A DNA stretch of 64,000 nucleotides from Tilletia caries (lineage: Eukaryota > Basidiomycota > Exobasidiomycetes > Tilletiales > Tilletiaceae). Every line of letters begins with the position of its first letter. Within the stretch, counting starts at the first letter, position 1. A program made the translations under genes and the position numbers. Below are positions 33,234 to 54,326 of this stretch, piece by piece. Where the stretch lies: positions 744,001 to 808,000 of the forward strand of contig JALUTQ010000045.1 of NCBI GenBank assembly GCA_032718865.1, written 5' to 3'. A model generated the notes under the pieces. It saw nothing but the letters and a program-made list of their open reading frames with translations, was not told the DNA's origin and ran no database searches.

Positions 33234-33364
33234 GATGTTTGAACCTCTGGGTTCAGATCTGATGGAAGTGCTGGTGTTTGAAAAGATGTTGAGAGGACGC
33301 GCAGGAAATGTGAGCCCCTGCGTTCCCTTTCATGTTAAGGTCGATACCTAACTGACTTTTCCAC

Positions 33365-34155: not shown

Positions 34156-34487
34156 TTTTCCACCACTTCTACTCAACCAGGTGGCGGCGTGGCGCGTTGG
34201 GCATGTTGTCCGTTCTCTCCGCCCCGACCGGGCTGGCAAGGGTCTCTAAGTAAATCATCGATAATCGAGAATTCAGTCTCGCAACACCGTGCGGCGACTC
34301 CGCAACACCGTGCTGCCAGCGTATCACGTGACTTTTCGCTGTCGAAGCCATATTGAAATTTGGCGCTCAAGATTATGGGATTCAAGGAGTTAAAATCCCC
34401 ATAGAACCAACTCCGTTCCCCAAACATTTATGGAATCTCGACAGATTATGGGGTTATAGGGCATGGAATTGGAGAGAGCCAGCTGTA

Positions 34488-34740
34488 CTATCTCCTGATA
34501 GTATACTATAGCATGCGGCTTAAATTGTACGCCACTTTTAGTCTACTATATTCATATTTCATACTATAGTATATAATGACAATTTTCAGCCTAATTGTGC
34601 AGTGTGCACTGCCACCTTCGGTGGCGTTTTAGACCCCCTAGAAAGTCCCTAAAACCGGCTCGTTTTGTTGCCCTTGAAAATTTCTGATTTGTCTTTACAA
34701 TTGCCCATCTAAAATTCGTCTAAAACTGGATGGTTATACG
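34488..34740. repeat. ACTATAGT fragment plus GCCACCTTCGGTGGC palindrome repeat
   Basis: The first part repeats 27705-27812. The second (gcactgccaccttcggtggcgttttaga...) recurs inverted at about 59140-59262. The junction suggests a composite MITE family with a gccacc/ggtggc hairpin. Confidence 0.6.
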
Positions 34741-35181
34741 GTGCTGACTTTCCTCACGTGTTCACTCATCTACAACGCGTCAGCGTTAGGCGAAACAACA
34801 CCCAACACTTCCTGCATGACTTATATATTACCACGTCATCATTGAGGCCATCGCCGCTATACTTGCTGCCGCTTTCATACATGCAGTAGCGATGTCATTG
34901 CGTTGCTGGTGCTGGCTCGCCCTGGTACCTGACGAGATAGGGTACATCCACGATGCTGCTGCCGTCCGCCGCGGGGTATAATGCGAGTTGCCGTCACTGG
35001 TTGTGCGTCGGGTTGGGTGGATCGTAGAGGCGGGTTGCTCGCTGCGAACGGGAGTGATGACGCCAGGGCTTGACGACTCTCCTAGTGACGGTGATGGGGT
35101 TATACGATCGATGGGTTTGCTTGCTTGTGGCCGCTGACGTAGGGGTGAAAGCGTTGGCCTTAGTCTCTCTCGTCTTGTCCG

Positions 35182-35188
35182 TATAAAA
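35182..35188 (+). promoter_or_regulatory. TATA box of the accessory gene
   Basis: The word tataaaaag lies about 105 bp upstream of the ATG at 35290, a usual distance for a core promoter with a short 5' leader. Confidence 0.5.
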
Positions 35189-35289
35189 AGGGTCGGTACT
35201 CACTGTGTCCGTGTCTCCTGCGCCCTCCAATCCAACCGCTTTCCTCTACTTCCGCGCACACATATCCCTTCGAGCTACAGGGTTAGAGA

Positions 35290-36915
35290 ATGTCTCGTCA
35301 GCGTTCGGCCGTCGGTCAAAACCAGAATCCCTTCGGACTCACAGGCAGTGGATCGTCGTCCTCGTCGTCCGCCTTCAAACGCATCACCGCAGAGTTGGCC
35401 CAGATTCGGAAGGACCAGCATCGTCTGTTGGCATCCGTTCAAAACGTGGTCAGCAATCAGCAGACGGGCCAAGGCGCAGGCACTGCATCTAGGGCTAGCG
35501 ACATACCTCCCGGCGTTATCTTCACCGCCACGGGTGGTCCAGCGGTCCCTCCTGTGGGTGTCAAGCACAACCACTCTTTGATCCTCCGTAACGCTCGATC
35601 GTTGGTTACCGAGAAGATGGGCGACCGGAGCAAGCGTCCGTACGAATACGACTACCCCAAGACGGTCTCGGCGTGGCGGCTTCGCGTCATTGCTGGTCGG
35701 GACGGTGATCCGGATCGAGAGGTCCGCCTCCTGCGGCTGAACTGGGCAAAGTCGTACATGTCCGAAGAGGTCCAGAGTCAGTTGCGCTGTATCTTCGACT
35801 ACCTTCTCACTCACCGGCGAGCCCACGGCGTCCCGGCGCATATGACCCGGGAACATCTAGTCTCGCTGTTCAGGAACACGTACGAGTATTGGCAGCGGCA
35901 ACATCGCCTTCGTCGTACCGCCAAGGGTCGATCGCAGACTGCTCAAGAGAAGGCTCGGAGTAAGCTTCTCTCTCGTAGGCGCGCGAAACTGTCCGCACGT
36001 ACCGAGGCGCTGGGTATCCCCGAACTTGTCCGATACGCGGACGGTACAACCTTATCCCGCAAAGGCAAAGCGAACGAGGCGAAGGTAGCAGCCCGGGGTT
36101 TGGATATGCGTGCCGACATCGAGTTCGCAGTGCAGATGGCCGTCCACTCACCTGAGGAAGTGGAGATGGAGTCCCACAACAATGGCGAGCGTATGGTCGT
36201 ACGTCCTATGTTCTTGGAGTGGCGCTCTCTCGAGTTGCTCGACACTGTGAAGTACATGGACGACAACCGGAAGCGTCTGCGTCCTCATCCGGTTCGCAGT
36301 TGCCTCCACGTCTTCCGGCAGTCGTCCAACTTTCGCCTTCCATCCACCGTCCGTCGCTGGATGGTCAGTTCTGAATTCGCTGCCGAGCATCCGGACGTTT
36401 GTTGTAACGTGTCCGATGACGCCGGTCCATTCGACGTCGAGACTGCCAATTTCGCCATGGTCGATTCGCCAACGACATGGGGTTGTCCTATCCCTGTCAA
36501 CAGGCTCCCTCCTACTCGATCGAATGGCGAATACTTCGGTCCTGGTGAAGCCGCCGAATCGGACGGTGAGGGAGACGCAAGGGATGGGGAAGTTGGTGGT
36601 GGTAACTCGCAGGATGCTGAGGCTGGGGTTGAAGATGATGTGGAACCATGGGACGACGGCGATTTTGACAACGATCCCTTTGGCGAGGGTGGGGAAGGGA
36701 GTGGAGAGGGCGAGGACCTGTTTGGCGAAGGGCGGGTTGATGACAGTGACGACGATGACAGTGGCGATGACAGTGACAGTGACGATGGTGGTGACGAATT
36801 TGACGACGATGGTGACGGTGGTGATGATGGGTACGGCGCATATGCTGGTCTGGGTTATCGTGGACGCGTTGGCAGTGTTGAAGGGGTCAGTGGTTTTGAT
36901 TTGGATGACCTTTGA
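35290..36915 (+). CDS. Transposon accessory protein, 541 aa, acidic C-terminus
   Basis: A single intact exon. The N-terminus is Ser-rich, then come helical parts (AFKRITAELAQIRKDQHRL; YLLTHRRAHGVPAHMTREH; YWQRQHRLRRTAKGRSQ) and a very basic stretch (KLLSRRRAKLSARTEALG). A conserved block follows, LPSTVRRWMVSSEFAAEHP, and last an Asp/Glu/Gly-rich tail. The basic and acidic halves suggest a nucleic-acid or chromatin-binding protein. The block LPST(V/I)xR..VSSEFA..HPD is repeated in the gene at 60891-63363, which also lies tail to tail with a similar transposase. I infer a second gene of the same transposon. Its function is unknown. It ends 71 bp from the convergent transposase stop. Confidence 0.75.
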   Translation: MSRQRSAVGQNQNPFGLTGSGSSSSSSAFKRITAELAQIRKDQHRLLASVQNVVSNQQTGQGAGTASRASDIPPGVIFTATGGPAVPPVGVKHNHSLILRNARSLVTEKMGDRSKRPYEYDYPKTVSAWRLRVIAGRDGDPDREVRLLRLNWAKSYMSEEVQSQLRCIFDYLLTHRRAHGVPAHMTREHLVSLFRNTYEYWQRQHRLRRTAKGRSQTAQEKARSKLLSRRRAKLSARTEALGIPELVRYADGTTLSRKGKANEAKVAARGLDMRADIEFAVQMAVHSPEEVEMESHNNGERMVVRPMFLEWRSLELLDTVKYMDDNRKRLRPHPVRSCLHVFRQSSNFRLPSTVRRWMVSSEFAAEHPDVCCNVSDDAGPFDVETANFAMVDSPTTWGCPIPVNRLPPTRSNGEYFGPGEAAESDGEGDARDGEVGGGNSQDAEAGVEDDVEPWDDGDFDNDPFGEGGEGSGEGEDLFGEGRVDDSDDDDSGDDSDSDDGGDEFDDDGDGGDDGYGAYAGLGYRGRVGSVEGVSGFDLDDL

Positions 36916-36986
36916 CCGATGTGGCATAGTGGTCTGCTCACCTTATGTTCAATGAAACCTTTTGACTTCGACCGTCCCCGGCGACT

Positions 36987-38043
36987 CTACGTGGGGATTC
37001 CTACGATGGTCCCTGGCCTTGTCCATCCAATCGATGCAGTGTTCACTGTCAACGCTACAGATGCAATGTCCTCGACGCTGATCACCGCCTCCTGTGGGTC
37101 GTCCCGCGTTGCCAACATATATCCCAGTTCTGTCCACATCGAGTCCGAGAACAGATGTCGGTCAGGCCAGTCCTGGTGTTGGAGGACTTTGATCTGAGCG
37201 TACGTGTTGTGTATCATCGTCTGTGCGGCCTCCTCGAAAAAATGTGCTTGAAAGCGTATAGAAAGTTAGCCAGTCTCTTCTGACCACCGAATCTCACAAC
37301 ACAGAAGGACGGGTCGGAAGTCGCTGCGTGGGCTGGGCCCTGTGGGGATAAAGTTGAGTTTCTTACGTCAATCCGGTTGAGGCGAGTGGCCATGTTGTTG
37401 GCAACGTTTTCTCTCCGACCTGGTGTACTGGCCGCCAAAGGGATGAGCGGCTGGGAATCGGCGGGGCGGCTCCTATTGGCGATGCTGCAGACGGCTTCCA
37501 GTTGGGTTAGGGTCAGTCGCATCGGTTTGGCGGTTCGGGTTGATGTGAAGCCTTGGTCCGTTTCGTCATCCATCGTCTTCGCGCCCTGCCGACTCTCGCC
37601 CTTGATGATTGCTCTCATTGTCGTCACGAGAGGTAAAGGCGGGAGGTTCTCGAGGGCTGTCGCGACGCGATGTCGGTCGTCTGTCCGACTGATCAGGGAG
37701 AATTCGATCTGCCCGTTCCGATGTCGGTTGGTTTTGATCTGATGGATGGAATAGTAGTGAGTGTTTTTGGAGTTGGAGTTCGGATCTGATTACTTACTTG
37801 CTTCATTAGTCCGTAGAGGCGCTCCGATGGGTAGGCCCAGTACGCCCTCGGCGGGCCATGGAGGCGGATCTGGTCCGCTATATGGAGCACGATGTGATAA
37901 TTGTAGGTCAGCCATCGTGGATGGAGATCCGTGGCAAAGATCTTGACGAGGTCGGAGAGATGTTCGTGTAGTTTGTCGAGCTGTGCATCCGCGAGAATGT
38001 AGGCGTGTGCGAGTCTTGTAGAATGCGCTAGATGTAGGCTGGC
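36987..38043 (-). pseudogene. Plavaka/Tnp2-like transposase, C-terminal third
   Basis: This is the continuation of the gene at 39568-40956 after a 1.5-kb insertion. It begins ASLHLAHSTRLAHAYILAD and holds the conserved C-terminal Tnp2 motif YNYHIVLHIADQIRLHGPP, RAYWAYPSERLYGLMKQ. A 59-nt intron (37797-37739, gtaagt...catcag) joins to IKTNRHRNGQIEFSLISRT, LPLVTTMRAIIKGE and LTLTQLEAVCSIANRS. Later segments (SDPSFCVV; MIHNTYAQIKVLQHQDW; MWTELGYMLATRDDPQEA) lead to a TAG at 36987. Similar blocks appear at 63442-64000 in the second copy. Late splice sites are not fully resolved. The gene encodes a DDE transposase of the CACTA (CMC) group. Confidence 0.7.
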
Positions 38044-38051
38044 TTCCACAA

Positions 38052-39559
38052 TAAGGTTGTCCCCGGAGTAACGCGGAGGGCTCCGCCTCCGCACTTCCAA
38101 ATTCCGCCGGAATTATGACTTTTTGAGGCGAGCTCCGCCTCCGCAGACTAAGACAGAGCTGAAAAAAAAACAGCTCCGCGTTCCGACGGAATTATACAAA
38201 AGTTGAAATCCCAGCTCCGCGCTCCGCGTTTTTTCTGTGCGTTTTCATAATGCTCCTCCGTGCTCCGTGTATGCGGAGCTCGGAATTCCGCGGAATTCCG
38301 TCGTAGCGCAGTGGTGGTATAATTTGATCTCAGAATGACTCTAACACAATCAGAGCTATCGTTGCCAACCTTCCATGCTCTGCGTGTCAGAGTTTTCCCC
38401 AGACTTTTTGAGGATTTAAGGGTTAATTCATTTCAACTTACGGCCGAGAAAGACGTGTGCCAGAACTTGATCAGAGTATCTACACATTGGTAGAAGTGGT
38501 CGTGGTTACACGTCACGGAGATGGCCTCAGTTGATGTCAGAGTGGTAATTGGTATAGGCCTGGTTTGTGGTAGAAGCTGTCACTAATCTTGGTGCGAGGG
38601 TGGGGCGTGGGGTAGACCGGTAGACGTCGTCGAGAATCGAGATTGCACAACTGGCTGACTGGGGGGGCGTCCCCCCCCAGACCCCTATGGCTTCCACCGT
38701 TCCACGGAATTCATGAAGTGGTTGAGTCCGGACTCCGGAGTCGGACAGAGTCAGTAGTCAGTGGTTGGAATTGGTGAGGGATGAAGATGACAGAGCTGGC
38801 CACAAGCGGCGTTAAGGTTTCGACCTTTCGGAGGTGAAGTGTACGCCGGAAATCACGGAAACTTGCTAACTCCGTGACGAGGTCAAAACTGGTCGGGGAC
38901 GTCCCAATTGACCACCCTTCAAAGTCATCCAAACGACGCGTAACTTGGCGACATAACAGAGGATAGGGATCTTCCCCTGCTGAGAAGTTTTGAAGAGGAT
39001 ACGTGCAGAATTGCGAAAAAAGTTTCAATTGATGTAGGCGGATAGCTCTACGGCCGTAAGAAAACCACCTCTATAACCCCAGTACTAAAGTCTGGGGAAT
39101 ATATTCACCATCCGACGTTGCTGCGGTATTAACTCCAGTGCTATTCTGAAGCTCTCAACGGACGATGACGCCTGTTTTATCCCCTGCGCGTGTCTCGACG
39201 ATGCCTATTTTCTGGGAATTCCGCAGATTTCCGCGGAAGTTGGACGGAACTCCGGCGGAGCGCACCCAAAATAAGGTCACGTGACCCATATTTTCGACTA
39301 TCACGTGACCTCACAGCCCCGTCGGAATACCGCGGAAATTCCGCCGGAATTGTCACACCATTTTGACGACTCCGCGCTCCGTACTTTTGGCTAGTGGGCC
39401 CAGGATTGGGCTCCGCGCTCCGCGTAAATTCTGGCGGAGTCCTCCAGGCGGACTCCGTGCTTTTTTAAGATCAAAAATTTCTCAAAAGTGAGCTCCGCGC
39501 TCCGCCTCCGGCGGAGTCCGCAAAACCCCAGCTCCGCGTCAACTCCGGGGACAACCTTA
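38052..39559. mobile_element. TAAGGTTGTCC element, 1508 bp, TSD TTCCACAA
   Basis: The ends are TAAGGTTGTCCCCGGAG and aactccggggacaacctta. Perfect 8-bp duplications TTCCACAA (38044-38051, 39560-39567) flank it. It is inverted relative to the copies at 19553 and 33365 and about twice as long because foreign DNA is inserted within it (about 38363-39100). It splits a coding exon of the transposase; with insert and one duplication discounted the frame runs KLVRIVE then ASLHLAHS without change. Confidence 0.92.
38363..39100. mobile_element. Insertion nested in the 1.5-kb element
   Basis: Aligned with its relatives, the host element is colinear up to caatcagagctat and resumes at ccatccgac. The intervening ~740 bp has no counterpart in other copies. 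Inverted cttacggccg (about 38437) and cggccgtaag (about 39055) may be its ends. A short minus-strand frame (38711-39028) has no recognised domain. Exact ends uncertain. Confidence 0.45.
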
Positions 39560-39567
39560 TTCCACAA

Positions 39568-40956
39568 TTCGAACAAGCTTGACGGGGGTGGAGAAAGTCC
39601 TGGTCTTCTTGTTGTGTTCGCTGACTTTCTTGCGTTTCCGAGGCGGTTTCGTATCTTGCCCTTCTTCGTTATCAGTCTCCGAAGCCATGCTGCTGTTGTC
39701 TTCCCTCTTCGGACACGGGCTCCTCCTCCTGGCGTCGCCCTCGTGGAGCCTTGGCCTTGCCTTTTCCCTTGGCCTTGCCTTTCCCCTTGGTGCTGCTCGT
39801 TACCGTCCGCTTCGTGGAAGAGAATACCTTTTCTATCTCTCCAGAGACTGACCACGAAAGCGCGAGCAGAAGGGGCAACAGGTATCGAGATAGGATGGAC
39901 CAACCGTGTGCTGTAGGGGATCCTCCTCCTGTGTCGCCGAGGGTTGTGGAAATCTTGGTCATACCGGCCGGGTACGTCGTCGCGGCGAGCAGAGCTTGAC
40001 AGCGCTTGAGGTCCGGGCCTTTGAGAAGACCTCCTGCCGTCAGTGTGTCCGTCCAGAAGTGTCGACAGAGTCCAAGATCGAGGGCGTGCATGACGTCCAC
40101 AGGAGCCATCGTGAGGCTCGACCATCCGTCCAGCTTGTATAAGGCGCAGGGAGCAGCAGCCGCTCCTCTTCGTAACAGGACTACGTCCAGTGCCGAGGGT
40201 TCGTTGAGCGTATCTCGTAACGCCGCTAGGGAGTTCCTGCGATGGTCGCCGACTGTACGCATTTCGAACGGTTTTGCCTCCAGATGCCGGTGTACCCAAG
40301 TGTCGCCGTCCGCTGTACACCACGGACAGAACTGTTCTTTGGACGAATGATGTGGAAAACCAGCTACGCTGGTGCGGGCTTCCGTGTCGGCGATAAGGCA
40401 TCGAAGGCGAGCATGAATGTGGTGCGTCGCGCCCGACCAGTCGATCACCTTCAGTCCGGCCGTTGCGAGGCGGTGGAGTTCCGTGATCATGATTTGTAGT
40501 ACCGATTGTAGAGCTTCGACTTTCGGCTTTTTGGGTCCAGGCAAGATGCAGCAGATGTGGGTTGAGTCGGGTGAGTTCCGCAACTGTCGTGGGAGGTTGT
40601 CGATCCTCAAGGATACGACGCAGCAGCTGTAAGGAGTCGTACCCGAGCGGCTGAATGGCTGTACGGAGTCGATCATCATGGTGAGGGACAGGTTATTCCC
40701 TGAGGCAATGCGGGCGTCGGATGCCCATGCATCCCCATCGTAGATGTCTTCGAGAACTCCGGGGTTGTGTTGCCGCGACCGCCACTGATTGCAGAGAGAG
40801 AAGAAATCTTCGCGTCTGGCGAGTTCGAGGAGCCAAGAGGAAATCGGTTCGTAGTGGAGAGTCAGTCGAGCCCTGCTCCGTTTCGACTGACTGGGTGCAG
40901 GAACGTCAGCATCTGCCTCCTCGTCGTCCTCGCCGGAAGTATCGGTACCAAGAAGC
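39568..40956 (-). pseudogene. Plavaka/Tnp2-like transposase, central part
   Basis: The minus frame, open from 40956, reads LGTDTSGEDDEEADADV, LHYEPISSWLLELARREDF, PGVLEDIYDGDAWASD and NNLSLTMMIDSVQPFSRS. It continues RIDNLPRQLRNS, GPKKPKVEALQSVLQIMIT and EQFCPWCTADGDTWVH. This is the fungal Tnp2-like order: an acidic Asp near DSVQPF, GPxxPxxxxxxL, and a Cys pair. Later come APVDVMHALDLGLCRHFWT and a Lys/Gly-rich linker. One frameshift or short intron lies near 39680, before ETDNEEGQDTKPPRKRKK. It joins 51482-52244 upstream and 36987-38043 downstream. Such transposases cut out CACTA-group elements in the nucleus. Confidence 0.75.
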
Positions 40957-40984
40957 TATGGAACGCCGTTTTCACCACCTTCGC

Positions 40985-41075
40985 TTTTCCCTTTTCCCTT
41001 TCCCCTTTCCCCTTTTCCCTTTTCCCTTTTCCCTTTTCCCTTTTCGCTTTTCCCTTTTCGCTTTTCGCTTTTCCC
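40985..41075. repeat. Subterminal TTTTCCC/TTTTCGC minisatellite, left
   Basis: About ten units of cttttccc, ctttcccc and cttttcgc lie just inside the left end of the 10.5-kb element. The right end has the same array in inverse orientation, shorter. They may be transposase binding sites or a product of slippage. Confidence 0.85.
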
Positions 41076-41099
41076 TTCTTCAGCTTCAGCTCAGTTGGA

Positions 41100-42900
41100 A
41101 TCTCCCGGGCCCCTCGGAACGGAGAGGAACGGGACTCAGTCAAGAGGTTTCCGACGCCAAAGGGAGTGTAGATTGTACTCAGAGTGAGCTGAAGTACATG
41201 CGGAATGCGATATAGTAGAACAGAAGAAAGGTGAAGCTGAGAAGCTGAAGAGGGAAGAAGAGGTGCTCGACAGACCATGAGACTACGGATGAAGACCACT
41301 CCACAGTGGTAAAAGACCGGATTTCCAACTCTCCCACCTCGAGTACCCTGTTCTGACATTTGACAGTGACCAATACCTGGCCAACCGTGCTGAGGTGAAC
41401 GTCCTGCTCTCCATGACCGTGGTCGCCGGCTTTTTGAGGAAGTTCGTAACGTGATTGAAGTGATGAAGTGAAATTGAGAGGGTGTGTGGGTCGACTGCAG
41501 ATGACGGCGAAGTCGAACTGCAAGAGGTTGAATGCTGCATGACGACGTGTTGAATGCTGAGTGCTGAAGGGGTGTGATGTCGTGCGGAGGTGCTGTGATG
41601 ACGATAATGGCTGTAAGAGGTGTTTGTTGCAGCCGGTCGTGCCGATGTGCTACTGCTGATGTGCCGAACCCGCCGCTGCTCCCACCGTTCCTGAACGCCA
41701 AAACCACCATGCCTTCCCAAACACTGACCATTTACCGCCTAGCCTCATCCTGCACCAATATACCTGCGCTGCCATCCTGCTCCGTACCTGCTCCCCACAC
41801 TGCCGCACCGCCTGATCAAGCCCTCCACCGCCAACATGCCCACGTATCGTGTGTCCTTACACGACTGCCTAATCCTAGCACCCGAAACACTGCCCACCAG
41901 CCACTGTGCCCGTGCTTGTCCCTCAGTCGTCATTGAGTGATGAGTCGACGCCGAGGTACTGGGCAACGCGCAAGAGCGGAGAGAAAGGGAGCAAAGGGAG
42001 GACTTGGCTGCATTGAAGGCGTGAGAACCTTAAGTTGCGTCTGGTGCGTGCGTCTGTGCGCGGAACCGAAGCTTGCTGGATGCCCAGCCATGATCGAAAC
42101 ACTCCGCTGAGTGCTGTGCTCCTCTTGAACGAGTGTCGACCCGATGAACTTGTCGCTCGGTCTCCTTGACGACCGAGACTTGAAGGAGTGGCAGATCTTG
42201 CGCGCGGTGGTCGGGTGTGAGGAAGAAACGCAGAACGCGCGTTCCCCTTTTTGCTGCTGTTGCCGCCGGCTATGCCGATCGCGGCCCGACAACCCGACGC
42301 ACACCTGCTGTCGATCTCGATGCCGTTTGACTTGGTGCCGATGCCAAAGGGCGACACCCCACACAGTGCCTGCGGCTTCCGGGCGCAAAGAACTCGTCCA
42401 TCCCACACCATGTTCCCAGCGCGGGCCACAGCCCATGCTGTTCCGTGCCTGAGTGTGGACCGACTGTGTTCTACTGCGCCAATTGCAAATGCACTCCCCA
42501 GAGTCCAGACCTATCCCTCTAACCCCACCTGTACCATCCTGCCCGTTCATTCATCCTGAACCCAGCCATCACATCCTGCTCCCACCCATCCCTGACTCCC
42601 AAACCAAACCAAACTCAACCAAGTCAACCAATCCTCCTCACCCAAACGCCTGGCTGAGGCCGGAACGCACAGAGAAGTTGTTGCTGTCAGCTGTTGCTGT
42701 TCGTTGATTGTGTCTTGACGGTGCCGAGCAGTTTTATGCTGATGAAGACTTGAGATTGTGACGTGATGATGACGGTGCAGAGGCAACGCTTGTGCCATTG
42801 CAGGGGTTGAGATCGGCAGAGCAGCTGCTGCGCTGTCTGCTTCAGGTCCGATGCCTGATGGTGCGCCTGGTGCAACGACGAGACCGGAGCGAGATTGTCC
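41100..42900. other. Internal part of the 10.5-kb element, no gene recognised
   Basis: Many overlapping frames on both strands are His/Ser/Pro/Arg-rich and look like shadows of compositional bias. I see no intron-exon structure or domain. C-rich + strand tracts (42490-42640) look untranslated. Confidence 0.4.
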
Positions 42901-42908
42901 AGAGAGGG

Positions 42909-43677
42909 TAAGGATGAGCACGGAGTAAGCCCCGGAGCGACTTTGCAGGAGCGCCCCGGTTATCCGGGGCCGCACTCCGGGGGAGCCGGGAGTACGGAGT
43001 GAGAATCAGGCGTTTACCTCACCGTTGCCGGAGTACGGAGCTGACTTCTCAGCATTATAGGAAATTCCCCGGAGTACGGAGCTGACCTCTGGGCGTTGCG
43101 AAAATTCCCCGGAGTACGGAGTAAATACCTGCGAAATGTGACGGAGTACGGAGTTACCCCCGGAGTCCGGGGCGCTCCGGGACCTCCACATTTTTCTCAT
43201 AAGGCAGGTATTTTCCCATAAACATGAGTATTTTGAGGGTATTTTGGGGTCAATTATCAAAATTTATTTTCACAAATCTCATCTCACAGTCTAAATCTGA
43301 CCAAAACAACTCTTCAAGCGCTCTCAGCCTGTTCTCTTAACCACAGCTGCTGCAAGCTTGATTACGAGCATACACTTTTCTGAATTTTGTACCATTTTGA
43401 GATTTGTGAGATCATCTCCCGGAGTACGGAGCTCCCCCGGAGTATCCGGGCTCCGTAGCTACGCAGTACGGAGTAGACTTTCTGAAACACTTCATGATTT
43501 GACGGAGCACGGAGTAAGTTTTCCCTGGTGCTCCTTATCGTGACGGAGTACGGAGTAAGATGCTGGTGCAACTCTGGAAAAAGACGGAGCGCGGAGCACC
43601 ACAGAAAGTCAGCGGAGCGCCCCGGAGTATGGGCCCGGGAGTACGGAGCACTCCGGGGCGCTCCGGGCTCATCCTTA
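42909..43677. mobile_element. TAAGGATGAGC element, 769 bp, TSD AGAGAGGG
   Basis: The ends are TAAGGATGAGCACGGAG and ctccgggctcatcctta. Perfect 8-bp duplications AGAGAGGG (42901-42908, 43678-43685) flank it. It is very close to 14669-15403 along its length (ggagtacggagctgacct, caaaatttat, gtttctgaaacacttcat blocks). It lies inside the 10.5-kb element and so arrived later. Confidence 0.93.
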
Positions 43678-43685
43678 AGAGAGGG

Positions 43686-45060
43686 GTGTGGTTCCGGATG
43701 GTGGTGATGTGGAGGGTGCTGTAGTGTGGCTTCGGTTCTGCGCGTCGAGTCGAGACTCCTAGTAGCGGCAACCATTCATGGAGGTGGTTCGGGCTCCGAA
43801 TGAGCTCGATTGAGTACGAACTCGTCGCAACTGCCCACACACCCAACAGCACAAGACTCCAGAGTCCAAACACTCTGGGGGGCTGTCTTCCTTCAGCGGG
43901 CACCAGCCGCGCTGCCTCTCCTGTCCCTCACTATGTCCACCGACCACCAAACCGAAACCAATCCTATCCTCTACCCATAGCCATCCTATACCCGCAGTGG
44001 ACGCCGCTGTGGCGAGCGCCACATGCTGGAAAGGGGGCCATACTGGGGGAGAGGTGCTCGTCACTCGAGTTGTGACTCGTAGCGCTCGCAGAGGAGAAAG
44101 TTAAGGCAAGATGGTCAGCGTACATCCTACTGAACAGTGGTGCGTTGCAAATACGCACCGGTAGGAGATGTCTCCATCCTGCCAAGCGGGTACAAGCCGA
44201 AGCTTGCAGGCAGGGTGTGGGGACAGAGTTCCGGTCATCAACCGGACACGGTATGACTATTGAACCAGCTATGCCGCTCGCGTGCTGTTCGCCATCCCGG
44301 CACGGCGCGAAGCTGAGAGTGGTGGTGGTGGCTGTCATGGGAGAAGATGCTGCGCCACTGGAAATCGATCCATTGTGTTGGGCCGCAGATTGTGATCGTC
44401 CCGCAGATGAACTTTGTCTGCTCATTGGCTCCGCCAAGTAGGCTTCGCCAGACACCACATATCCAAACCACTTCGCTGTCATCGCCCGAAACCTCGCCGT
44501 CCAAAGAGAAGCACCGCTAACGGGAGGAGGAGGCGACGAGCGAGAATCGTCTGGATGACGAGGGACGAGGATTCGTTCTGTTCGAAGAAAAGGGTTTGCC
44601 AAAAAGAAGAAACGTCTGAGAGAACGGCAAAGTAATGAAGTAGGGACGTCAGTGCCAGTTGTGGACCCATCGGAAGCACACATCAGAGTCTTCAAGCACA
44701 TGGGTCGGTCTGGTGCCCGGTACAAGTGTGTTTTCGGTTACTAGAGGCTTGCCGCTTGGACATGAGAGAAGAGGGGATGGAGAACGCAGTCATCAGTCAT
44801 AGGCGGGTCACCTGCGTCTTTGCTGACTAGGGGGTGTGAGGAATGTCCTGCGGGTACCATAATCTAACCTGCCGCAGATGCGGTGGTAGTTAAGCATAGC
44901 CTCGGCGTGGCGGTCGACGGGCTGAAAGGTGCGAATGGTTTTACTGAGCTGATGACGATCTGCGCCAACCTTTAGCCTGTGGTGCACGTCGATCAGGGTT
45001 CGACAATTGGATAAATTATGATTATTGTCAGCCTTCCCAATTTGAAAGTCAGAGGACTTA
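43686..45060. other. Internal part of the 10.5-kb element, no clear gene
   Basis: A minus frame from 44725 (MYRAPDRPMCLKTLMCASD) is open for about 250 codons but is compositionally weak, with no domain and competing + frames. I do not call it a gene. Confidence 0.35.
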
Positions 45061-45070
45061 GATGGTTAAC

Positions 45071-45790
45071 TTACGAGAGAGACTTGGGGTATGCTGCCCT
45101 TCGGTTGACAGATGGGCCGACTTCGTTGTCTGGAACCACAAACCCCTCCAGGTGCTGTTTCTGAGGCCGCCTGAGTCGAGGCTTGATGCGCACCTCGGAT
45201 CCGTCGGGCGCTTCAACCGCTGCTTCCGCCTCCACAAATTTGTTGGCAAGAATCCGGGCCTGTTTCACCTCCTCTCGCTGCGCCGCCCGAAGCGCCTTTT
45301 GCTGGGCTTCGATCCGTTTGCTACGTAGCTCGTTGAGTGCCGTATGTCGTCGGTCGTTGGGTTGTCCGCGCCGATTGCGGAGCCGCAACATCCTGCGCTT
45401 TGGGCCACATGGTCGCCGATCCAAGCGTGATTCAGGCTGAACCCCCGTGTGTGCTGCTTCCGTGACCGTTCCGGTTGACTGGGCTGCCGTTTCCGCTGCT
45501 GCCGCCGCCGCTGCCGTCGCTGCTGCTGCTGCTTTCTTTGCCGTCGCCGCTTGCTCACGCAGATGCTGCCGTCTTTCTTTCCGCATTGTTTCAACTTGGG
45601 CGCAGGTTTGGAGTGATGTTCATCTATCACATCGGACATCCAATCCATATACATATATTCCGGCGTAGGTTCCGCTGCCCGATCAGCCCCCGGCGCCCAT
45701 CGCACTGAGAAGTGAGAACAGTCCATAGGGCACGGGCTCCCGCATTTCGGTGACCGGAACATATGAGGCTTGATACATACACTCGCCGTC
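45071..45790 (-). pseudogene. Ala/Arg-rich hypothetical gene with frameshifts
   Basis: Three successive minus frames make sense together: YVPVTEMREPVPYGLFSLL, then RAAEPTPEYMYMDWMSDVI and DEHHSKPAPKLKQ, then TMRKERRQHLREQAATAKK followed by an Ala run, RRMLRLRNRRGQPNDRRHT, ALRAAQREEVKQARILANK and HLEGFVVPDNEVGPSVN. Two one-base changes are needed to join them, so the gene is probably broken. The last part looks like a basic coiled helix. No family recognised. It lies within the 10.5-kb element, on the same strand as the integrase. Confidence 0.4.
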
Positions 45791-45799
45791 CGACGGAAT

Positions 45800-47440
45800 G
45801 ATGAGGGGGACTTACGCGGTTGCGCAGTTACGCCCGCGTCGCACCTCCTGAGTTCTGATTTTACATACTCTGTTTCAATAATGAATTAGACTACTGTGAA
45901 CTGTAGTCTTCCGCGGTCAGCCCTACCAGCTGTTGCGATGCCATTTGGGCTTTGGCAAGCGCCAGCGACTGCACGGCTGGTACGCTGGTTACAGGCACCA
46001 AAACAGGGGTTATCGTCTGAAGCTGGCCAATGCGAAATAACAAATGAGGCATGGGAGCATGGGTTAAGCCCGAACGACGACCGCTTGTCACCTCACTGGT
46101 GTGGTGACTCAGTAAGTCTCAGTGTGTTAATTTTCAGCCGGCAGCCCCGCGTAAAGATCTCATTATTCGCATCTTCTCGTTTGACCGCCGACGTGACAGC
46201 CGACGTAAGGCCGCGCCCCGCGCCGGCCGGCCGTGTGGCGTGATTAACAATTCGCATATTCAAGTTTCAGGAACCAGGGTTTTCATTTTCTAAGCTAAGG
46301 CGCCCGAATGGCCAGGCCAAGCCACACTTCTTCGAAGGCTGACGCCAACTGGCCGTGCGGCGTGCCTCCTTCCGGTATAGAAGTGTATCACTGTGCTCAT
46401 CTGTGCGGATTGATGCCTGTCGGTGTGCAATAATGTATCATGGTGGCTGCCAGCTACCCGCTTCTGTCTCTAAATTAATTGTCTCATCTATATTGCAAAG
46501 CACTCTAGTTTATTGCGCCTCAGTTCCTGAAACGCTACATATGGAGACCGATCACCGAGGTCCGAGACTCGAGAGAGTGCAAGACCGCTTTCTAATGAGG
46601 TGAAGCAACCAGCTCAACCTTCTGCCTTCGACAGTGACCGATGATCAGCGACTGCTGAGTTAATATAGTCATCCTCGAGGCCCGACCTCCGAGAGTCCGA
46701 GCCCGATAATCGACCGAACAGAAATCAGGGTCCAGCCGAACATTCTTTTTTTAATGTAACTCAATAACATTCTTCCGCTCGTCGTCGCCTCGCTACATCC
46801 GTTCCGGCTTTCCGGGTCTCTTGCCTTTTTTCATGTACCTTATTCAAGGAATGCATCACGCAGGTCGCAGACGAAGAACAAGGTCGTATATGTGGCACTT
46901 TTCCTTCTTCCAGCCCGTTCTCTGAAGCACCCCCTCCCCCTCTAGTTTCCTCTCTTCTACCATCTCCTCTGAGCTCTGCCCTTTCACCTCTTACCTTCCT
47001 CTACCTCCGACGCCTTCTGCCACACTCACACTACCGGCCATACTCGCCTCTCCTCTCCATCGGCTCTCTGCGCGTATCTTCTCCTCTCCTCTCCTCCTAC
47101 CTCGCCGCTTCGGCTCGTCAACGTCGCGGCACTCCTCGTCGCCGCTAGTCTTGAGCTGTGTGGACCATCTAGCGCATTGTCCGTCTGGCGCTCTTTGGGC
47201 TCAGGCCTGTGATACTCGCTTCTTTTGGTCCCCTCTCGAGCAGTGCGGTGGCACCTGTGCAACGACGTCGGCGAGTTCGGTGCGACAAGACTCGAGGACG
47301 ATCGGACTGCGCGAACTACATTGCTGTAAGTTACTTCCACACCCCAATGCTCTCGCTGCGGTCTTGGCCCCTTGCTGACATGCGCTACTCTCTTCCTTGT
47401 CTCGTATCTTCGTAGTATTTTGGCGCGATCAGGCGCTTGT
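45800..47440. other. Spacer and probable promoter region
   Basis: No coding region recognised. The last 500 bp before the gene at 47445 are strongly pyrimidine-rich on the + strand (cccctccccctctag; ctcctctcctcctac), as is common in fungal 5' regions. An isolated CCGGCCGG palindrome lies near 46223-46236. Confidence 0.4.
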
Positions 47441-47444
47441 TATC

Positions 47445-49441
47445 ATGGATACGCGCAGCACACAGCCTGCGTCCAGCGCGGCTGGTGATTCGACAGGGCA
47501 GCACAGCAACAACGTGAGTTCATTCCATCCATTCTTACCGTCGCAGACGTCCACGTTGATCGTATGACTGACATCTGTATTCTTTTTGGATAGGATATCA
47601 ACGCCACGCTCGCGGCAATTCTCAAGCAGGTTAACCACGTTGGTACCAACGTGGATGATGTCTCCGGCAAGCTCGGCAAGGTCACCGAGCGACTTCAGTT
47701 GCTGGAAGCCCACTCAGGTCTCTATGGCCAGTCCACAGCTCCTCGGCCCTCTGACAACGGCACTACTACTAGTGAGTAGCTCCTGCTTCGGTCCAGAAGA
47801 GCCTGACATAACCAGTTACTGATTCACTTTGCTCTTCCTCAGCTCCCGTCCAGTCACAGCCAGTCCGTGGATCGATGTTTGCGGGACCGGGACCTTCGAC
47901 GTCCTACGCCTCAGGTCTGCCGCAGCATTCTTTCCCGGCCGCAGCGCCTACGACGAGCGCCGGCATCCCCGATATGCGCTTCCAGTCCACGTCCTCGGGA
48001 GGCACTGCGGACGACATCGAATTCCAAATGCTCCGAATGAGCTCGCCAGCCACGTCGACCTCGCAGCCGTCTCAGCACTCTCAAGGTCCAGGCCACTTCG
48101 CAAGCAGGGGGTTTCCTTCTGTCCGGCACCCGTCTTACGGGCAGCTTCGACCTTCACCGGCAACAGCAACCAGCTTAGCGGCAAGACACGTGACAAGGCA
48201 CGGCAAGCTGATGGCAATCTCAAGGGGCACCGGCGCAGGTTCGAAGTCGGAACAAGGATCCTCGGGTCGAACAGCACCAGTTCAACCGATTGTCTTCAAG
48301 AAACGCAAGGGCGACCAGAGCAGCTCGGGTATCGTCCTCCTCAAGGACCGTCGGCTTCTTGACGAGAACCTGCGCATGGGCAAAGCCGGAAAGCAATTCG
48401 AAACCCTGGTCGACAAGCATCGGCTTCGGATCTGGCCGGTCATTCCAAAGACTGCGGACGCTAAGGAAGTGTTCAGCATCATCGTGTCAGAGTTCGAAGC
48501 TCACGGACATCGACTGTGCACGGAAGGTCAATGCGGATACGAGTGAGTACTAACAACCTCACTTCTCTCGCTACATGCTTGAGCTCGCATTAACTTACGC
48601 ATACATCTCTTAACTTAGATTTGCGTGTCTCAGCACCTCCGACCTTAAGTTTCGCACGCTTGGGAGCGACGAGCAGCATGCCGTCGACTTCATCAACGCT
48701 CAAAGCCTTCAAGCTAAGTTCACCGGCCGCGAATGCTTCATCGTTGTCAAGAGCGACCTCAAGGCAGAAATCTACGACAATCTTCTGTCGAAGATCTCCA
48801 AGCGCCACCGCCACGAGGACGAGTACGACTCCAACATCAGTGCCATGAGCGGCGAAGATTCCGATAGTCGATCAGCGCAGGACAAGGAGTTTGACCAGTG
48901 TTACCGCTGTAGGAACACCTTTCCTACGTCCGTTCTGGCAGCTCATGAAGTGGGTTGTCGGCCAAAGAAGGTGAGTCTCATGTTAGGTCTGGGATGTTGG
49001 ATAGCTGAGCCAGCGAATGTTCCGATGAGCGTGGCTAACATGATAGCCTTCCTTTCCTTAACACAGAAACGGTGCGAATACAAGTACGTCAACCACATCG
49101 ACGACAGCGACATTGAGCTCGTGATGCCAAAGACGGAACAAGTAGAGGATGACCCCCTCGACGGGCCTTTCTTCGAGTCGGACGATGACCTTGACGGCAA
49201 CGCAAACGACGGCGACCGTACCATCTCGAGCGACTACACCAAGGGCGGCGGCGGCACTACCAGTTCCAAGAGCATTGCCCAGTCTGACGTCAAGATCATC
49301 GATAATTCAGTCAACGCTTCCGACGGCTCATCTTTGACATCTCTTCAACCAGAAGATGCCAGCGACGATACCGCGCATCAACGACAGTCTCCTGACCACT
49401 CGCAACGCAAGGGTCGTTCCGTTCCGAGGCGTGCATGGTGA
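47445..49441 (+). CDS. Zinc-finger protein of the 10.5-kb element, 557 aa
   Basis: Five exons: 47445-47513, 47594-47771, 47843-48542, 48619-48970 and 49067-49441, all with GTGAGT donors and AG acceptors. They join in phase to give an intact 558-codon frame. The N-terminal helix (NATLAAILKQVNHVGTNVD; GKVTERLQLLEAHSG) may form a coiled coil. A Ser/Pro/Gln-rich stretch follows, then a folded-looking part (KQFETLVDKHRLRIWPVIP; SDLKFRTLGSDEQHAVDFI; FIVVKSDLKAEIYDNLLSK). A CxxC...HxxxxC zinc-binding motif (CYRCRNTFPTSVLAAHEVG then C) comes next, and an acidic, Ser-rich tail. It lies head-to-tail convergent with the integrase gene. I infer a DNA-binding accessory or regulator. Family not recognised. 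Confidence 0.75.
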
Positions 49442-49512
49442 GTATCTGCATGAGTCTCAGCTTTTGGCTGGCGATGCTATATGCTAACAAATCTGTCTTG
49501 TGTTTGTGTGAT

Positions 49513-51319
49513 CTACAACACCTCGTTGATGGCATCCAGCACATCCAAGTAGGCACGCAGGCCGAAATCTTCGGGAGGCGGGAACGACGGAGAAGGCAGC
49601 AGCTGCAATAACCCGTGTCGAGTCTCCTCCAGATTCAGAACCGGAGGAACGCGGTCTTCTATCCGGTCCACGTGGACGTGCGGGCCATCATACTCATCCA
49701 AACCCCCCTCCCCAACAACATCATCGACGCCATAGTCTTCCGCACCACCCATCTCCACGCCCGCCGCCTCCAGATCCTGCCTCTCCTCACGATCCATCAG
49801 CCCGACATCGAATCCCCGACGTGCAGCATCCCAAGAACCTTTCCATCCCCACCAGACACCAGTACGATTCATAACCATATCAGTGAGTACCCCAAGCTGT
49901 GCTTCGACGTACAATTACGCGCATGGACTCACCCAAAGTGTACATCTGCTCTGGCGACAGGTTCCCCATTCCTTTAGTTCGAACCTTGTGGTGGTTCCAC
50001 ATTCCAACAAAGTGGTCGAGCGCGCCATTCAAATGCGGCAAGAAGACGAAGTGAAGCGCCCACAAGTGGATATCCGACTCGATATCCAGCACACCACAGT
50101 CCTCAAGATATTCGAACCAAGACTTGTACTTGGACACCGTCCACTTGCGGAGGTCCACCCAGAGACGCTCGATCCTTTGATTGTGAGTAGAGGTGCCTTG
50201 GATGAAAGAGCCCCGGTCGAGACCTGAACACAATCTGATGAGCTTTCCTTTAACCATCGCAGAGAACTATTCGAATCTCGACACCACTCACCTCTTTTCG
50301 CCTCCATCAACCTCTTAACCCCCAAGTTCTCTCCTCCATGATCTCCTCTGACTCGACTCGGCCACCCTCGTTTTTCCACGGCCAGCAAGAACAGCTCCGA
50401 CACTGTCTCCGCTCGGTTGTTGCCGGATGCTTGTAGAAAGGTAACTAGTCTACTCTTGCCATCGATGGCACCGTGAATGACAATCTTCCACCTTATCAGC
50501 TTGTGATGCCCGTCTATGTGCCACAGGGAGTTGACGAAGGGCACATAGTATTCCCGACGCTTGAGATACTTGGTCCATCGAGAAGTAACCCCGATCGGGT
50601 CGAGGGCCTTGATCGCAGTCCTTAACTTCGACCTGCTGACCCGGATGCCAAGACTGTTTAAGGCACCCATCGTTCCTCGCTCGCCAACCGTGTCGCTGTG
50701 CATGCTGCGTAATTTTACAAGATGCTAAGATAGTAGATGAAGACAGTCGCGATTTGTGAGAATGATGAGGATGTGACGTTCATAGTTCAAGGGAATAGGG
50801 GCACGGACTGACCTCGATCAGAGCTTGCTCGTCAATGAAAGTGTTCCACTTCTCGATGCCCATCTCTTCGCGACGGCGATATATCGTTCCAGGAGAGCAG
50901 TCCAACATGATGGCGATGTCGGCATCCCGGAAACCCAGCTCTACAAGCTCCAGCAAGAGCTCGCCGGGGATGCTGAGTTTCCACTGACCAGAGTCCGCCT
51001 TGATCCACTCTTGCACGCTAGACATGGAACTAGGATCTGAGGTTCCGGCAGACGTTTGTTGCTGTAAAGAGGACAGCTGCTGAGCCAAGTCTTGAAGTGG
51101 AACCCACAAGCTGTCAAAAATTAGAGGATGGAGACGAGGGGACAAGTAGCGAAGAGACGTGGACAGCTCCTCAATGATCAACTCATAGATGAGAAGCATA
51201 TCGCTGTTGACAGGAGAGGTGGTCTGAGAAAGGGAGTGGGAAATGGGAGAGGTAGCCCGCGAAATGTCTTCACGGAGAGCCGTAACCTCTTCGACGGTGA
51301 GGAGTGAAACCTCCGTCAT
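49513..51319 (-). CDS. Integrase-fold DDE transposase of the 10.5-kb element
   Basis: Exon 1 (51319-50813) has a helical N-terminus and a helix-turn-helix-like region (ELVELGFRDADIAIMLDCS, PGTIYRRREEMGI). An 88-nt intron leads to exon 2 (50724-50292) with LNSLGIRVSRSKLRTAIKA, YYVPFVNSLWHIDGHHKLI (first Asp), WKIVIHGAIDGKSRLVTFL and RVRGDHGGENLGVKRLME (second Asp). Exon 3 (50223-49933) holds GSFIQGTSTHNQRIERLW (catalytic Glu, about 34 residues after the second Asp) and LNGALDHFVGMWNHHKVRT. Exon 4 ends at 49513. This is the integrase core (rve-like) family widespread in basidiomycetes. It would catalyse strand transfer of the element ends. The last acceptor site is uncertain. No disabling change is seen. 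Confidence 0.75.
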
Positions 51320-51412
51320 GGCAGAAACCAGAATGCAGACTGTGGTGGACGGTGGGAAGGATGTACATTCGATAAATTATAGAGCGCTGATGGAATTGGA
51401 AATATTAAAGCA

Positions 51413-51455
51413 GGGAAAAGGGAAAAGCGAAAAGGGAAAAGGGAAAAGCGAAGGT
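51413..51455. repeat. Subterminal GGGAAAA/GCGAAAA minisatellite, right
   Basis: Inverted counterpart of the array at 40985-41075: gggaaaagggaaaagcgaaa units just inside the right end of the 10.5-kb element. Confidence 0.85.
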
Positions 51456-51481
51456 GGTGAAAACGGCGTTCCATAAGAAGC

Positions 51482-52244
51482 AGAGGTCCGTCGCATTGGG
51501 TGCACTTGGAGGGGGTGTTGTTGTCCAAGATGTGTGGCGTCCAACATGTGTTGACGGGGCATAGGGCGTAGGCAACCGAGAGTGAGCCTTGCCATAGACT
51601 CTGCCGGATACGGCGGAGACGTACCGATGCTTGGGGCTTTGCGTTGAATGTGGGCATCCATTCGCCTTGCCGGGTCGTCTGGGCGAGCAGGGCTTCGATG
51701 AATGTTAAGAGCAGGCCGCATATGTGCTCCGAGATCCCGAAAGTGGCATTCAACCAGACCAGGAGTAGCTCGAAGAGCCAGAGCCCTTCCGGACGAGCCG
51801 TAACCCTCTCGTTATCCGTGCGCATCCAGTCTGTCTCTAGCTGGGACATCGTTGGCACCAAGCTGTCGTCCACCGCCGCTGCCGCCAACAGCTCCGGATC
51901 TTCGTTGTTGTCCACTCCAGTCTGCAGGACAAGAAAGATTCTAGTGTCAGCTGCTGTTCAGGCACACCACTGGTGCAGATACTCACAGCAGTCATCGAGC
52001 TGTCCACATCGCCGCCCCAGCCATTCTCGTCATCGTGAGTGCCCCAGTCCGACTCCAGTGAATCGAGCGTGCCGAAGTCATCTTCGGGAAAGAGCAGCTC
52101 GTCCAATGTCGTCGACGCATTCGGTTCGGCAGCGTTCCAAGGGTTGAGGTCGTCCAGTTCGTGCCGCTTCCTTGTTGAACGAACAACGTGCCGGCCCCCA
52201 GCTCCGCATTTGGAGCAGTGACAGACGACTTGACGCTGCTGCAT
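51482..52244 (-). pseudogene. Plavaka/Tnp2-like transposase, N-terminal part
   Basis: Exon 1 (52244-51987) starts MQQRQVVCHCSKCGAGGRH, a Cys-rich zinc-binding N-terminus. It continues with an acidic region (LLFPEDDFGTLDSLESDWG). A 65-nt intron (gtgagt...ctgcag) leads to exon 2 (from 51921): PTMSQLETDWMRTDNERVT, LWLFELLLVWLNATFGISE, RLRRIRQSLWQGSLSVAYA and a second Cys set, LCPVNTCWTPHI, KCTQCDGPLL. The exon is then cut by the 10.5-kb element and resumes in frame at 40956. The CxC N-terminus, CP...C...C..C segment and later Tnp2 motifs match fungal Plavaka-like transposases. Confidence 0.7.
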
Positions 52245-53194: not shown

Positions 53195-53768
53195 TCAAGA
53201 CCGTTCTCCGCGGAGCCGACGGGCAAGTTGCATGTCCTTGGGTCGAATGGTGACACGACCAGCATGGATGGCCGCCAGATTGCTTCAGGATAGGAATGAG
53301 AGGGAAAGTCAGTCAGTAGCCAGTCTCGCATCTATGAAGAAGGTAGGGATCCACATACTCACGTGTCTGCGAGGATTGAAACTAGATAAGCCTCGGAGGC
53401 CTCCTGGAGAGCCCCGGTCTGGAAGCGGAGGTCCGTCCTGATGACATCCTGAGCGATCTCACGTACGAGGCGCTGGAAGGGGAGCTTGCGGAGGCACAGC
53501 TCGGTTGACTTCTGGTACTTGCGGATCTCGCGAAGGGCGACCGTGCCGGGCTTGTAGCGGTGGGGCTTCTTGACTGGGAAAGGGAGGGCGGGACAAGGAG
53601 AAGAAGACATGTGAGTGAGAACCGCGGAACCAAGCTAGGAAGAGGAACGGGGAGGAGATGCTCACCACCACCAGCGGCACGAGCGAGCTTCTCGGCCTTC
53701 TTGGCTAGCTGCGCGCGAGGAGCCTTGCCTCCAGTCGACTTTCTGGCAGTTTGCTTGGTGCGGGCCAT
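53195..53768 (-). CDS. H3: Divergent histone H3 variant, 133 aa, three exons
   Basis: Exons 53768-53666, 53573-53363 and 53282-53195 join in phase to a 133-aa H3 (canonical 136 codons). The tail starts [18 protein letters not shown] as in all H3. It then differs: Ala replaces K18 (PRAQLA), and the ARKSAPATGG segment with K27 is replaced by [13 protein letters not shown]36 and K37 (GVKKPHR) remain. The core keeps [17 protein letters not shown] and LVREIAQD, with an extra residue before TDLRFQ. Three residues are missing at [13 protein letters not shown], and it has [18 protein letters not shown]. It would wrap nucleosomal DNA, but lost modification sites suggest a specialised variant or a decaying paralogue. 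It is not CENP-A-like in its tail. Confidence 0.88.
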
Positions 53769-54326
53769 AGTGGAAAGAAGGGATGGAAGGTAGGCAAGAA
53801 GGAAGAGGGAGGAGAGAGAGTGAGGAAGGGTGGTGAGGAGAGAGAGAAAGGGGGATCCAGAGTGGGTCAGAGTCGCTGTCTTTATACCTTTGATCTCCAT
53901 AATGAACCATGGGAGGAGGATCCTGGACCTACTGAAAAACAAGAGTATTCATCAGTATTCCTAGGTCAACCCGAGTAATCAAGAGTCAGAATAAGAGTTT
54001 TTATGAGTAAACTCGAGTACGACTCTGTAATGCACCTACGATGGCTTCAGCCTCAACACGGCGGCTCCAGTATTCCCTACGTACCCTACACCGCACGGCT
54101 CGTGGAACATCCGCGCACCATCACCGCCACGGCCCGGTGTCATAGGTGCCGGGGGGTGGGTGGGGGGCGGAGCACAGTAGTAGTTTCGATAATGAGGAAG
54201 CAAGCAGACGTAGACAGACGGTGGTAAGCATGCTGTATGGACCAGAGGTATCGATGGGGATTGGCGCAGATACTCACCGAGGGGGAAGGAAGAATCGGAA
54301 GGGAAGGGAGAAAAGAGGGACTCACG

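What the first reader, a model, noticed from the sequence alone, without database searches (positions are those of the whole stretch)
40957..51475. Complete 10.5-kb integrase-type transposon caught inside another transposase gene
Perfect inverted ends of about 45 bp (TATGGAACGCC...), subterminal GGGAAAA arrays and a 6-bp duplication AGAAGC are all visible. The insertion site can be checked at codon level, because the host transposase frame continues exactly when the element and one duplication are discounted. Inside are an integrase-core DDE gene with no visible lesion and an intact five-exon zinc-finger gene. A ~10-kb element with an integrase-like transposase, a zinc-finger partner and 6-bp duplications does not match a family I can name with confidence. 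It is the best candidate here for an undescribed mobile system.
Basis: partly seen in the sequence, partly recalled or inferred. Interest (0 to 1): 0.92.

Follow-up and report, generated by a model that had tools for sequence, protein, structure and literature searches.

The report
IS3EU-type transposon of wheat bunt fungus
The stretch is a real, multi-copy DNA transposon of a known but little-studied superfamily (IS3EU) in a Tilletia fungus, and its unusual point is a second gene, a zinc-finger protein, that travels with the transposase in related families.

Summary
Both ends are inverted repeats identical over 45 bp, flanked by AGAAGC; five other copies of the interrupted host transposon carry the uninterrupted site with one AGAAGC. 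Of 27 copies whose two ends I compared, 19 have an exact 6-bp duplication, and 155 exact ends with the shared 15-bp terminus occur in the 38-Mb genome. The closest named proteins are from Tilletia (bunt fungi). What is not in the passages I read is the partner: a spliced zinc-finger gene, tail to tail with the transposase gene. It is clearly present in a second family and probably in two more, there with a PHD-like finger in addition; one full-length relative is in T. indica. So: a new family of a known superfamily with a conserved second gene of unknown function. Most likely the transposase cuts and pastes, and the partner is a DNA- or chromatin-binding cofactor (inferred).

The parts
40951..40956 (.). 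target-site duplication, left copy (AGAAGC)
   Evidence: single copy at 5 of 5 empty sites
40957..41001 (+). terminal inverted repeat, left, 45 bp, TATGGAACGCC...
40980..41077 (+). subterminal array, 14 units of TTCCCTT-like 7-mers
41175..44619 (.). variable left arm: shared with the C5 copy and in pieces with a C28 locus, replaced by another, about 2-kb segment in C36, C23a, C11a, C11b, C3
42909..43677 (.). nested 769-bp repeat, 11-bp inverted ends TAAGGATGAGC, 8-bp duplication AGAGAGGG at 42901-42908 and 43678-43685; absent from the C5 copy
47445..49441 (+). partner gene, 557 aa, exons 47445-47513, 47594-47771, 47843-48542, 48619-48970, 49067-49441; no Pfam hit
48899..48958 (+). C-x2-C-x11-H-x3-C motif of the partner (only such motif in six frames of the window)
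49513..51319 (-). transposase gene, 518 aa, exons 51319-50813, 50724-50292, 50223-49933, 49838-49513; rva_4 domain, D240 D297 E332
   Evidence: last exon and first splice collinear with P0002
51412..51452 (-). subterminal array, right, 5.9 units of the 7-mer
51431..51475 (-). terminal inverted repeat, right, 45 bp
51476..51481 (.). target-site duplication, right copy (AGAAGC)
39672..40955 (-). host gene, downstream part: tnp2-type (CACTA/EnSpm-like) transposase interrupted by the element
51482..51957 (-). host gene, upstream part next to the insertion, same frame as in empty-site copies

Best explanation
The element is a full-length member of the IS3EU (IS3EU/GingerRoot) superfamily of DNA transposons in a Tilletia bunt fungus. 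Its 518-aa D-D-34-E transposase is thought to recognise the 45-bp ends and subterminal 7-mer arrays, cut the element out and join it to target DNA with a 6-bp stagger, which repair turns into the 6-bp duplication; in this way it entered a tnp2-type transposase gene. The second gene, tail to tail with the transposase, encodes a zinc-finger protein that is kept in related families and is more likely than not (about 0.6) a DNA- or chromatin-binding cofactor. Shown: ends, duplication, empty sites, copies, gene structures by homology, partner in a second family. Inferred: cut-and-paste, binding to the arrays, activity, the partner's role. The confidence given is for membership and for insertion with a 6-bp duplication.
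For: Ends and duplication. Exact 6-bp duplication in 12 of 15 copies, 1 of 2 and 6 of 10. 5 of 5 empty sites. Transposase rva_4 1.7e-71, rve 5.9e-4, weak HTH_23 upstream; IS481 model 2.2e-8 and IS3 0.0018, both far below the curated cut-offs. Catalytic columns kept in relatives from fungi, a mollusc, a fish, a coral and a sponge, bar one row with a gap at the E. Published IS3EU of rusts: 6-bp duplications, ends TAYGG..CCRTA, repeats over 30 bp. Partner in a second family with the same 15-bp end and 6-bp duplication AACGCC, and a T. indica relative, 51%.
Against: 8 of 27 compared copies lack an exact duplication, so some are recombined or wrongly paired. Three of the 12 duplications are one insertion copied with its flanks. 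No Repbase IS3EU sequence was on hand, so the phylogenetic placement itself was not tested. No excision footprint, transcript or activity was seen.
Confidence: 0.93

Rival explanations
1. The element is IS3EU, but the zinc-finger gene is a passenger (captured host or selfish gene) with no part in transposition.
For: Rust and truffle IS3EU carry other extra genes; TET/JBP genes move between transposon superfamilies (PMC12730594 passages). No Pfam domain in the window's partner. In C11b its omega is 1.0 with small indels, and C23b and most of C3 lack it.
Against: A recognisable partner sits tail to tail with the transposase in a second family and probably in two more whose transposases are only 29-47% identical to the window's; in 5 of 6 copy comparisons its omega is 0.11-0.48 (few substitutions).
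Confidence: 0.3
2. A superfamily of its own (neither IS3EU nor Ginger).
For: The two-gene zinc-finger architecture was not in the passages I read; no Repbase sequence could be compared.
Against: Ends, duplication length, inverted-repeat length and IS481/IS3-like transposase all agree with published IS3EU.
Confidence: 0.04
3. Ginger1/2 or Polinton/Maverick relative.
For: Integrase-type transposase; Polinton also makes 6-bp duplications (PMC10045372 passage).
Against: Ginger1 makes 4-bp and Ginger2 4-5-bp duplications (same passage). No stop-to-stop frame over 289 aa lies in the element, the left arm is exchangeable, and rva_4 scores 240 bits against 20.5 for rve.
Confidence: 0.02

Closest known systems
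IS3EU of rust fungi (Pucciniales; a Tuber indicum family too; Kojima 2025, PMC12730594)
   Same: 6-bp duplications, TAYGG..CCRTA ends, inverted repeats over 30 bp (as given there for the Pucciniales set), transposase gene opposite in orientation to a second gene
   Different: there the extra genes are TET/JBP dioxygenase and alpha-kinase; here a C2HC (in relatives also PHD-like) zinc-finger protein. Searches of this genome for alpha-kinase and Tet_JBP gave nothing, but their controls did not ring
IS3EU/GingerRoot at large (PMC10045372)
   Same: TA..TA ends, mostly 6-bp duplications, no HHCC domain reported by Pfam, IS3/IS481-like core
   Different: about 10 kb with two spliced genes and 7-mer subterminal arrays; I did not compare sizes with Repbase families
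IS481 and IS3 insertion sequences of bacteria
   Same: DDE core, best NCBIfam models
   Different: far below the curated cut-offs; spliced genes; much larger element
Ginger1 / Ginger2, Polinton
   Same: integrase-type transposase; Polinton 6-bp duplication
   Different: duplication length (Ginger) or gene content (Polinton)

Membership tests
IS3EU/GingerRoot | 6-bp target-site duplication | tested here: met
   19 of 27 copies compared (12 of 15; 1 of 2; 6 of 10); 17 of 25 if the three copies at one duplicated site count once
IS3EU/GingerRoot | termini TA..TA (rust fungi: TAYGG..CCRTA) | tested here: met
   TATGG..CCATA at both ends; 155 exact TAYGGAACGCCGTTT ends in the genome, control pattern 1
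IS3EU/GingerRoot | inverted repeats longer than 30 bp (TET+ families of rusts) | tested here: met
   45 bp perfect, 64 nt at 95%
IS3EU/GingerRoot | IS3/IS481-like DDE transposase without the HHCC integrase domain | tested here: met
   rva_4 240 bits, IS481 34 bits, IS3 17.6 bits (both under cut-off), no zinc-binding integrase domain reported
IS3EU/GingerRoot | transposase clusters with Repbase IS3EU transposases | not testable with these tools
   no Repbase sequence available; my tree holds only 27 proteins plus the window's
Ginger1/Ginger2 | 4-bp (4-5-bp) duplication | tested here: not met
   6 bp; the Ginger value is from PMC10045372 passages
Polinton/Maverick | self-encoded DNA polymerase and capsid genes (recalled) | tested here: not met
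   no stop-to-stop frame over 289 aa within the element; no targeted polymerase or capsid search was made
TET+ IS3EU | TET/JBP gene between transposase and alpha-kinase | tested here: inconclusive
   PF12851 and PF02816 gave 0 matches in the genome, but nothing rang in the 14 control genomes either

The most novel reading that the evidence does not exclude
Tilletia IS3EU elements are an obligate two-component transposition system: the transposase works only with a dedicated partner that joins a Rad18/ZC2HC-like finger, in three of the four families seen a PHD-like histone-reading finger, and a coiled coil, and that steers or licenses integration through chromatin; the window's family lacks the PHD-like part.
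Probability: 0.25. Interest if true: 0.65.

Novelty: new variant of a known kind. Interest (0 to 1): 0.45.

Why it matters
IS3EU is a little-studied transposon superfamily; the fungal cases I found in print emphasise borrowed TET/JBP genes. Here a family with complete ends, empty sites, short derivatives and a zinc-finger partner makes it possible to ask whether integrase-like transposons need a chromatin-reading helper. Related proteins in Tilletia are mostly named hypothetical or 'integrase catalytic domain-containing', which hides a sizeable transposon population: 82 exon-level rva_4 matches in this genome.

Tried and rejected
Ginger, Polinton and 'new superfamily' readings: see rivals. Partner search in 5.8 billion proteins: 1 hit with the window's protein and 2 with the two-family alignment, all Tilletia; in each search only just under 8000 candidates were scored, so absence elsewhere is not shown. 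Structure of the partner: P0001 alone mean pLDDT 37, three-row alignment 39; in the latter only the C2HC stretch (two-strand hairpin and helix, blocks of 75 and 79) and, less so, an N-terminal helix (65-68) have any confidence, so no fold search was made. Solved structures by sequence: transposase only a chance tRNase Z match at E 0.3 and none with the 26-row profile; partner only ING3 at E 0.94, which is not evidence by itself. A possible third gene at 45071-45619 (minus): no indel in C27b but substitutions not biased to third positions (9, 6, 10), and frame lost in 3 of 6 copies: left undecided. Print: IS3EU with fungi, 17 of 17 listed; Tilletia/transposable elements/IS3EU, 15 of 62 listed, none with all three; IS3EU/zinc finger/second gene, 10 of 1,634 listed, none with IS3EU; IS3EU with basidiomycet, 3 of 3; GingerRoot, 4 of 4. 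In these listings no paper on Tilletia names IS3EU. The main text of PMC12730594 has no 'Tilletia', 'PHD' or 'zinc finger'; its supplements and figures were not read. PMC9172201 (passages) sorts Tilletia transposons into 15 superfamilies, of which the passage names nine, none integrase or IS3EU; the word integrase does not occur.
Full report
1. What is there. The window is G000:C39:744001-808000 of a 38.1-Mb, 40-contig genome. The closest named proteins are from Tilletia: the partner protein is 99% identical over 63% of its length to a T. caries protein, and the three best transposase hits are T. caries, T. indica and T. horrida. The species itself was not determined. The element runs from 40957 to 51475 (10,519 bp). 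Its ends are identical for 45 bp and 95% alike over 64 nt, with 7-mer arrays, 14 units left and 5.9 right. AGAAGC flanks both ends.

2. The empty site. The search with the left end and flank listed five places that match the flank but not the element. In all five, the joined flanks of the window (element and one AGAAGC removed) align at 96-99% over 476-600 bp with exactly one AGAAGC at the junction. In 4 of 5 the host transposase frame is printed continuous across the site; for L058 the script printed another frame. The host is a tnp2-type transposase gene (Transposase_21 1.6e-7; DUF1258 0.0048 and Plavaka 0.006 below cut-off).

3. Copies. Fifteen copies with both ends, found by similarity, were compared: 12 have an exact 6-bp duplication; C3, C5 and C22 do not. 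C23a, C11a and C11b share one site and are one insertion copied with its flanks. Three fetched places were left out of that count because they showed one end (L055, L056) or none (L057). Ten further pairs, picked by hand from the 100 ends listed, gave 6 of 10; a second family gave 1 of 2. Together 19 of 27. The genome holds 155 exact TAYGGAACGCCGTTT ends (82 forward, 73 reverse; control pattern 1). Of the 100 listed (the window's own ends are not among them), 86 pair up as 43 +/- neighbours under 20 kb and 14 stay single; 28 of the 43 are 1.0-2.7 kb and 15 are 4.5-17.9 kb. Five short copies of about 2.0 kb share only the end regions with the window's element and look like non-autonomous derivatives; the 11.8-kb C27a is related to such short elements and holds another element whose frames read like a Helitron helicase (by eye).

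4. The transposase. Four exons on the minus strand give 518 aa. The model agrees with P0002 of T. caries at the first splice and in the whole last exon. Pfam: rva_4 1.7e-71 at 228-412, rve 5.9e-4, HTH_23 0.0034. D240, D297 and E332 give D-D-34-E, and the same columns are kept in a 20-row alignment of relatives, except that P0005 has a gap at the E. NCBIfam's best bacterial models are IS481 (2.2e-8) and IS3 (0.0018), far under their cut-offs. In a 28-row tree (27 hand-picked of the 120 listed hits, plus the window's) the window's protein sits in a group of five with T. horrida, T. caries and T. indica rows (100/100), within a Tilletia group of 12 (86/94).

5. The partner. Five exons on the plus strand give 557 aa, tail to tail with the transposase (gene ends 71 bp apart). 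Pfam finds nothing. It has C-x2-C-x11-H-x3-C, the only such motif in about 128,000 residues of six-frame translation of the window. The gene region is present in copies C36, C5, C23a, C11a, C11b and C27b (in C27b a nested insertion of about 1 kb lies in the third intron, and another of about 0.7 kb in the transposase's third exon; C11b has small indels); it is missing from C23b and, beyond its second exon, from C3. Against the window's copy, omega is 0.11-0.48 in 5 of 6 comparisons (C23a and C11a are one insertion) and 1.0 in C11b; the transposase gives 0.28-0.79 in six. Substitutions are few, so this is modest support for selection.

6. Other families. The genome search with the partner also found divergent relatives at C1:1704588, C1:233018 and C25:810309 (the last was not followed). 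The two C1 loci (L063, L064) begin and end with the same 15-bp terminus; L064 has the duplication AACGCC, L063 none. Their transposases are 43-45% identical to the window's over the first part and 56-69% further on, and, tail to tail, there is a partner alike at E 2e-13, of 530 aa in my model of L064, with the same C2HC motif and a PHD-like finger (PF00628 0.0012, under the cut-off); in L063 the partner frame is shifted. Annotated proteins back the model: P0122 (T. caries/laevis, 97% over 83%; it uses another acceptor for one exon and ends before the PHD-like part) and P0123 (T. indica, 51%, full length, named 'Zinc finger PHD-type'). Two more elements, L087 (duplication CACCTG) and L088 (GTATCG), have a transposase 35% (L087) and 47% (L088, 29% in its N-terminal part) identical and, tail to tail, frames with C-x2-C-x11-H-x3-C (L087; in L088 the last spacing is one residue and the motif test fails) and PHD-like stretches (PF00628 0.04 and 0.028, under the cut-off). 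Direct similarity of these two to the known partners is not significant (E 0.02 or worse), so they are probable, not proven, homologues.

7. Left arm. Between 41175 and 44619 the window's copy resembles C5 and, in pieces, a C28 locus; C36, C23a, C11a, C11b and C3 have another segment of about 2 kb there. A 769-bp repeat with 11-bp inverted ends and an 8-bp duplication is nested at 42909-43677; 37 further copies covering most of it are listed (only 40 of 291 candidates were scored). The two genes and the ends are the constant part.

8. What is known. PMC12730594 (passages, and section 3.1.3 whole) describes IS3EU in Pucciniales with 6-bp duplications, inverted repeats over 30 bp and TAYGG..CCRTA ends; its TET+ families carry a TET/JBP gene between transposase and alpha-kinase, which lie in opposite orientations. 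PMC10045372 (passages) gives TA..TA ends and mostly 6-bp duplications for IS3EU/GingerRoot and no HHCC motif. The window's element meets each of these that I could test. I could not place it in a tree with Repbase sequences.

9. How it most likely works. Shown: ends, 6-bp duplication, empty sites, copies, two genes. Inferred from the DDE family: excision, 6-bp staggered strand transfer and gap repair. Inferred with less certainty: the arrays are binding sites, and the partner is a DNA-, ubiquitin- or histone-binding helper (the motif spacing equals that of Rad18-type and ZC2HC fingers by recall). Whether the partner is required or a passenger is open.

Noticed in passing
window 42909-43677: 769-bp repeat with 11-bp inverted ends TAAGGATGAGC and 8-bp duplication AGAGAGGG, 37 other copies listed at 89-99%; looks like a hAT-type non-autonomous element (judged by ends only).
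   Followed up: partly
window 41175-44619 against L044 551-2610: Left arms of the family come in different versions joined at the same points, as if exchanged by recombination.
   Followed up: partly
window 45071-45619 (minus): Open frame of a basic, alanine-rich protein kept without indels in a 5% diverged copy; coding status undecided.
   Followed up: partly
G000:C11:5781-14955 and 33030-42236, C23:581535-590722: Three copies share one duplication and flanks, two of them inverted on the 48-kb contig C11; suggests a palindromic duplication or an assembly artefact.
   Followed up: no
G000:C27:207860-219674 (L046, L047): Short IS3EU-like element with a large nested element whose frames read like a Helitron helicase.
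   Followed up: no
G000:C1:466952-481348: Nested arrangement: ends of two 1.7-kb elements lie back to back inside a longer pair of ends that also holds an rva_4 gene.
   Followed up: no
window 53382-53948 (minus): Frame containing a histone H3-like start (MARTKQTARKSTGG...) beside the transposon-rich region.
   Followed up: no
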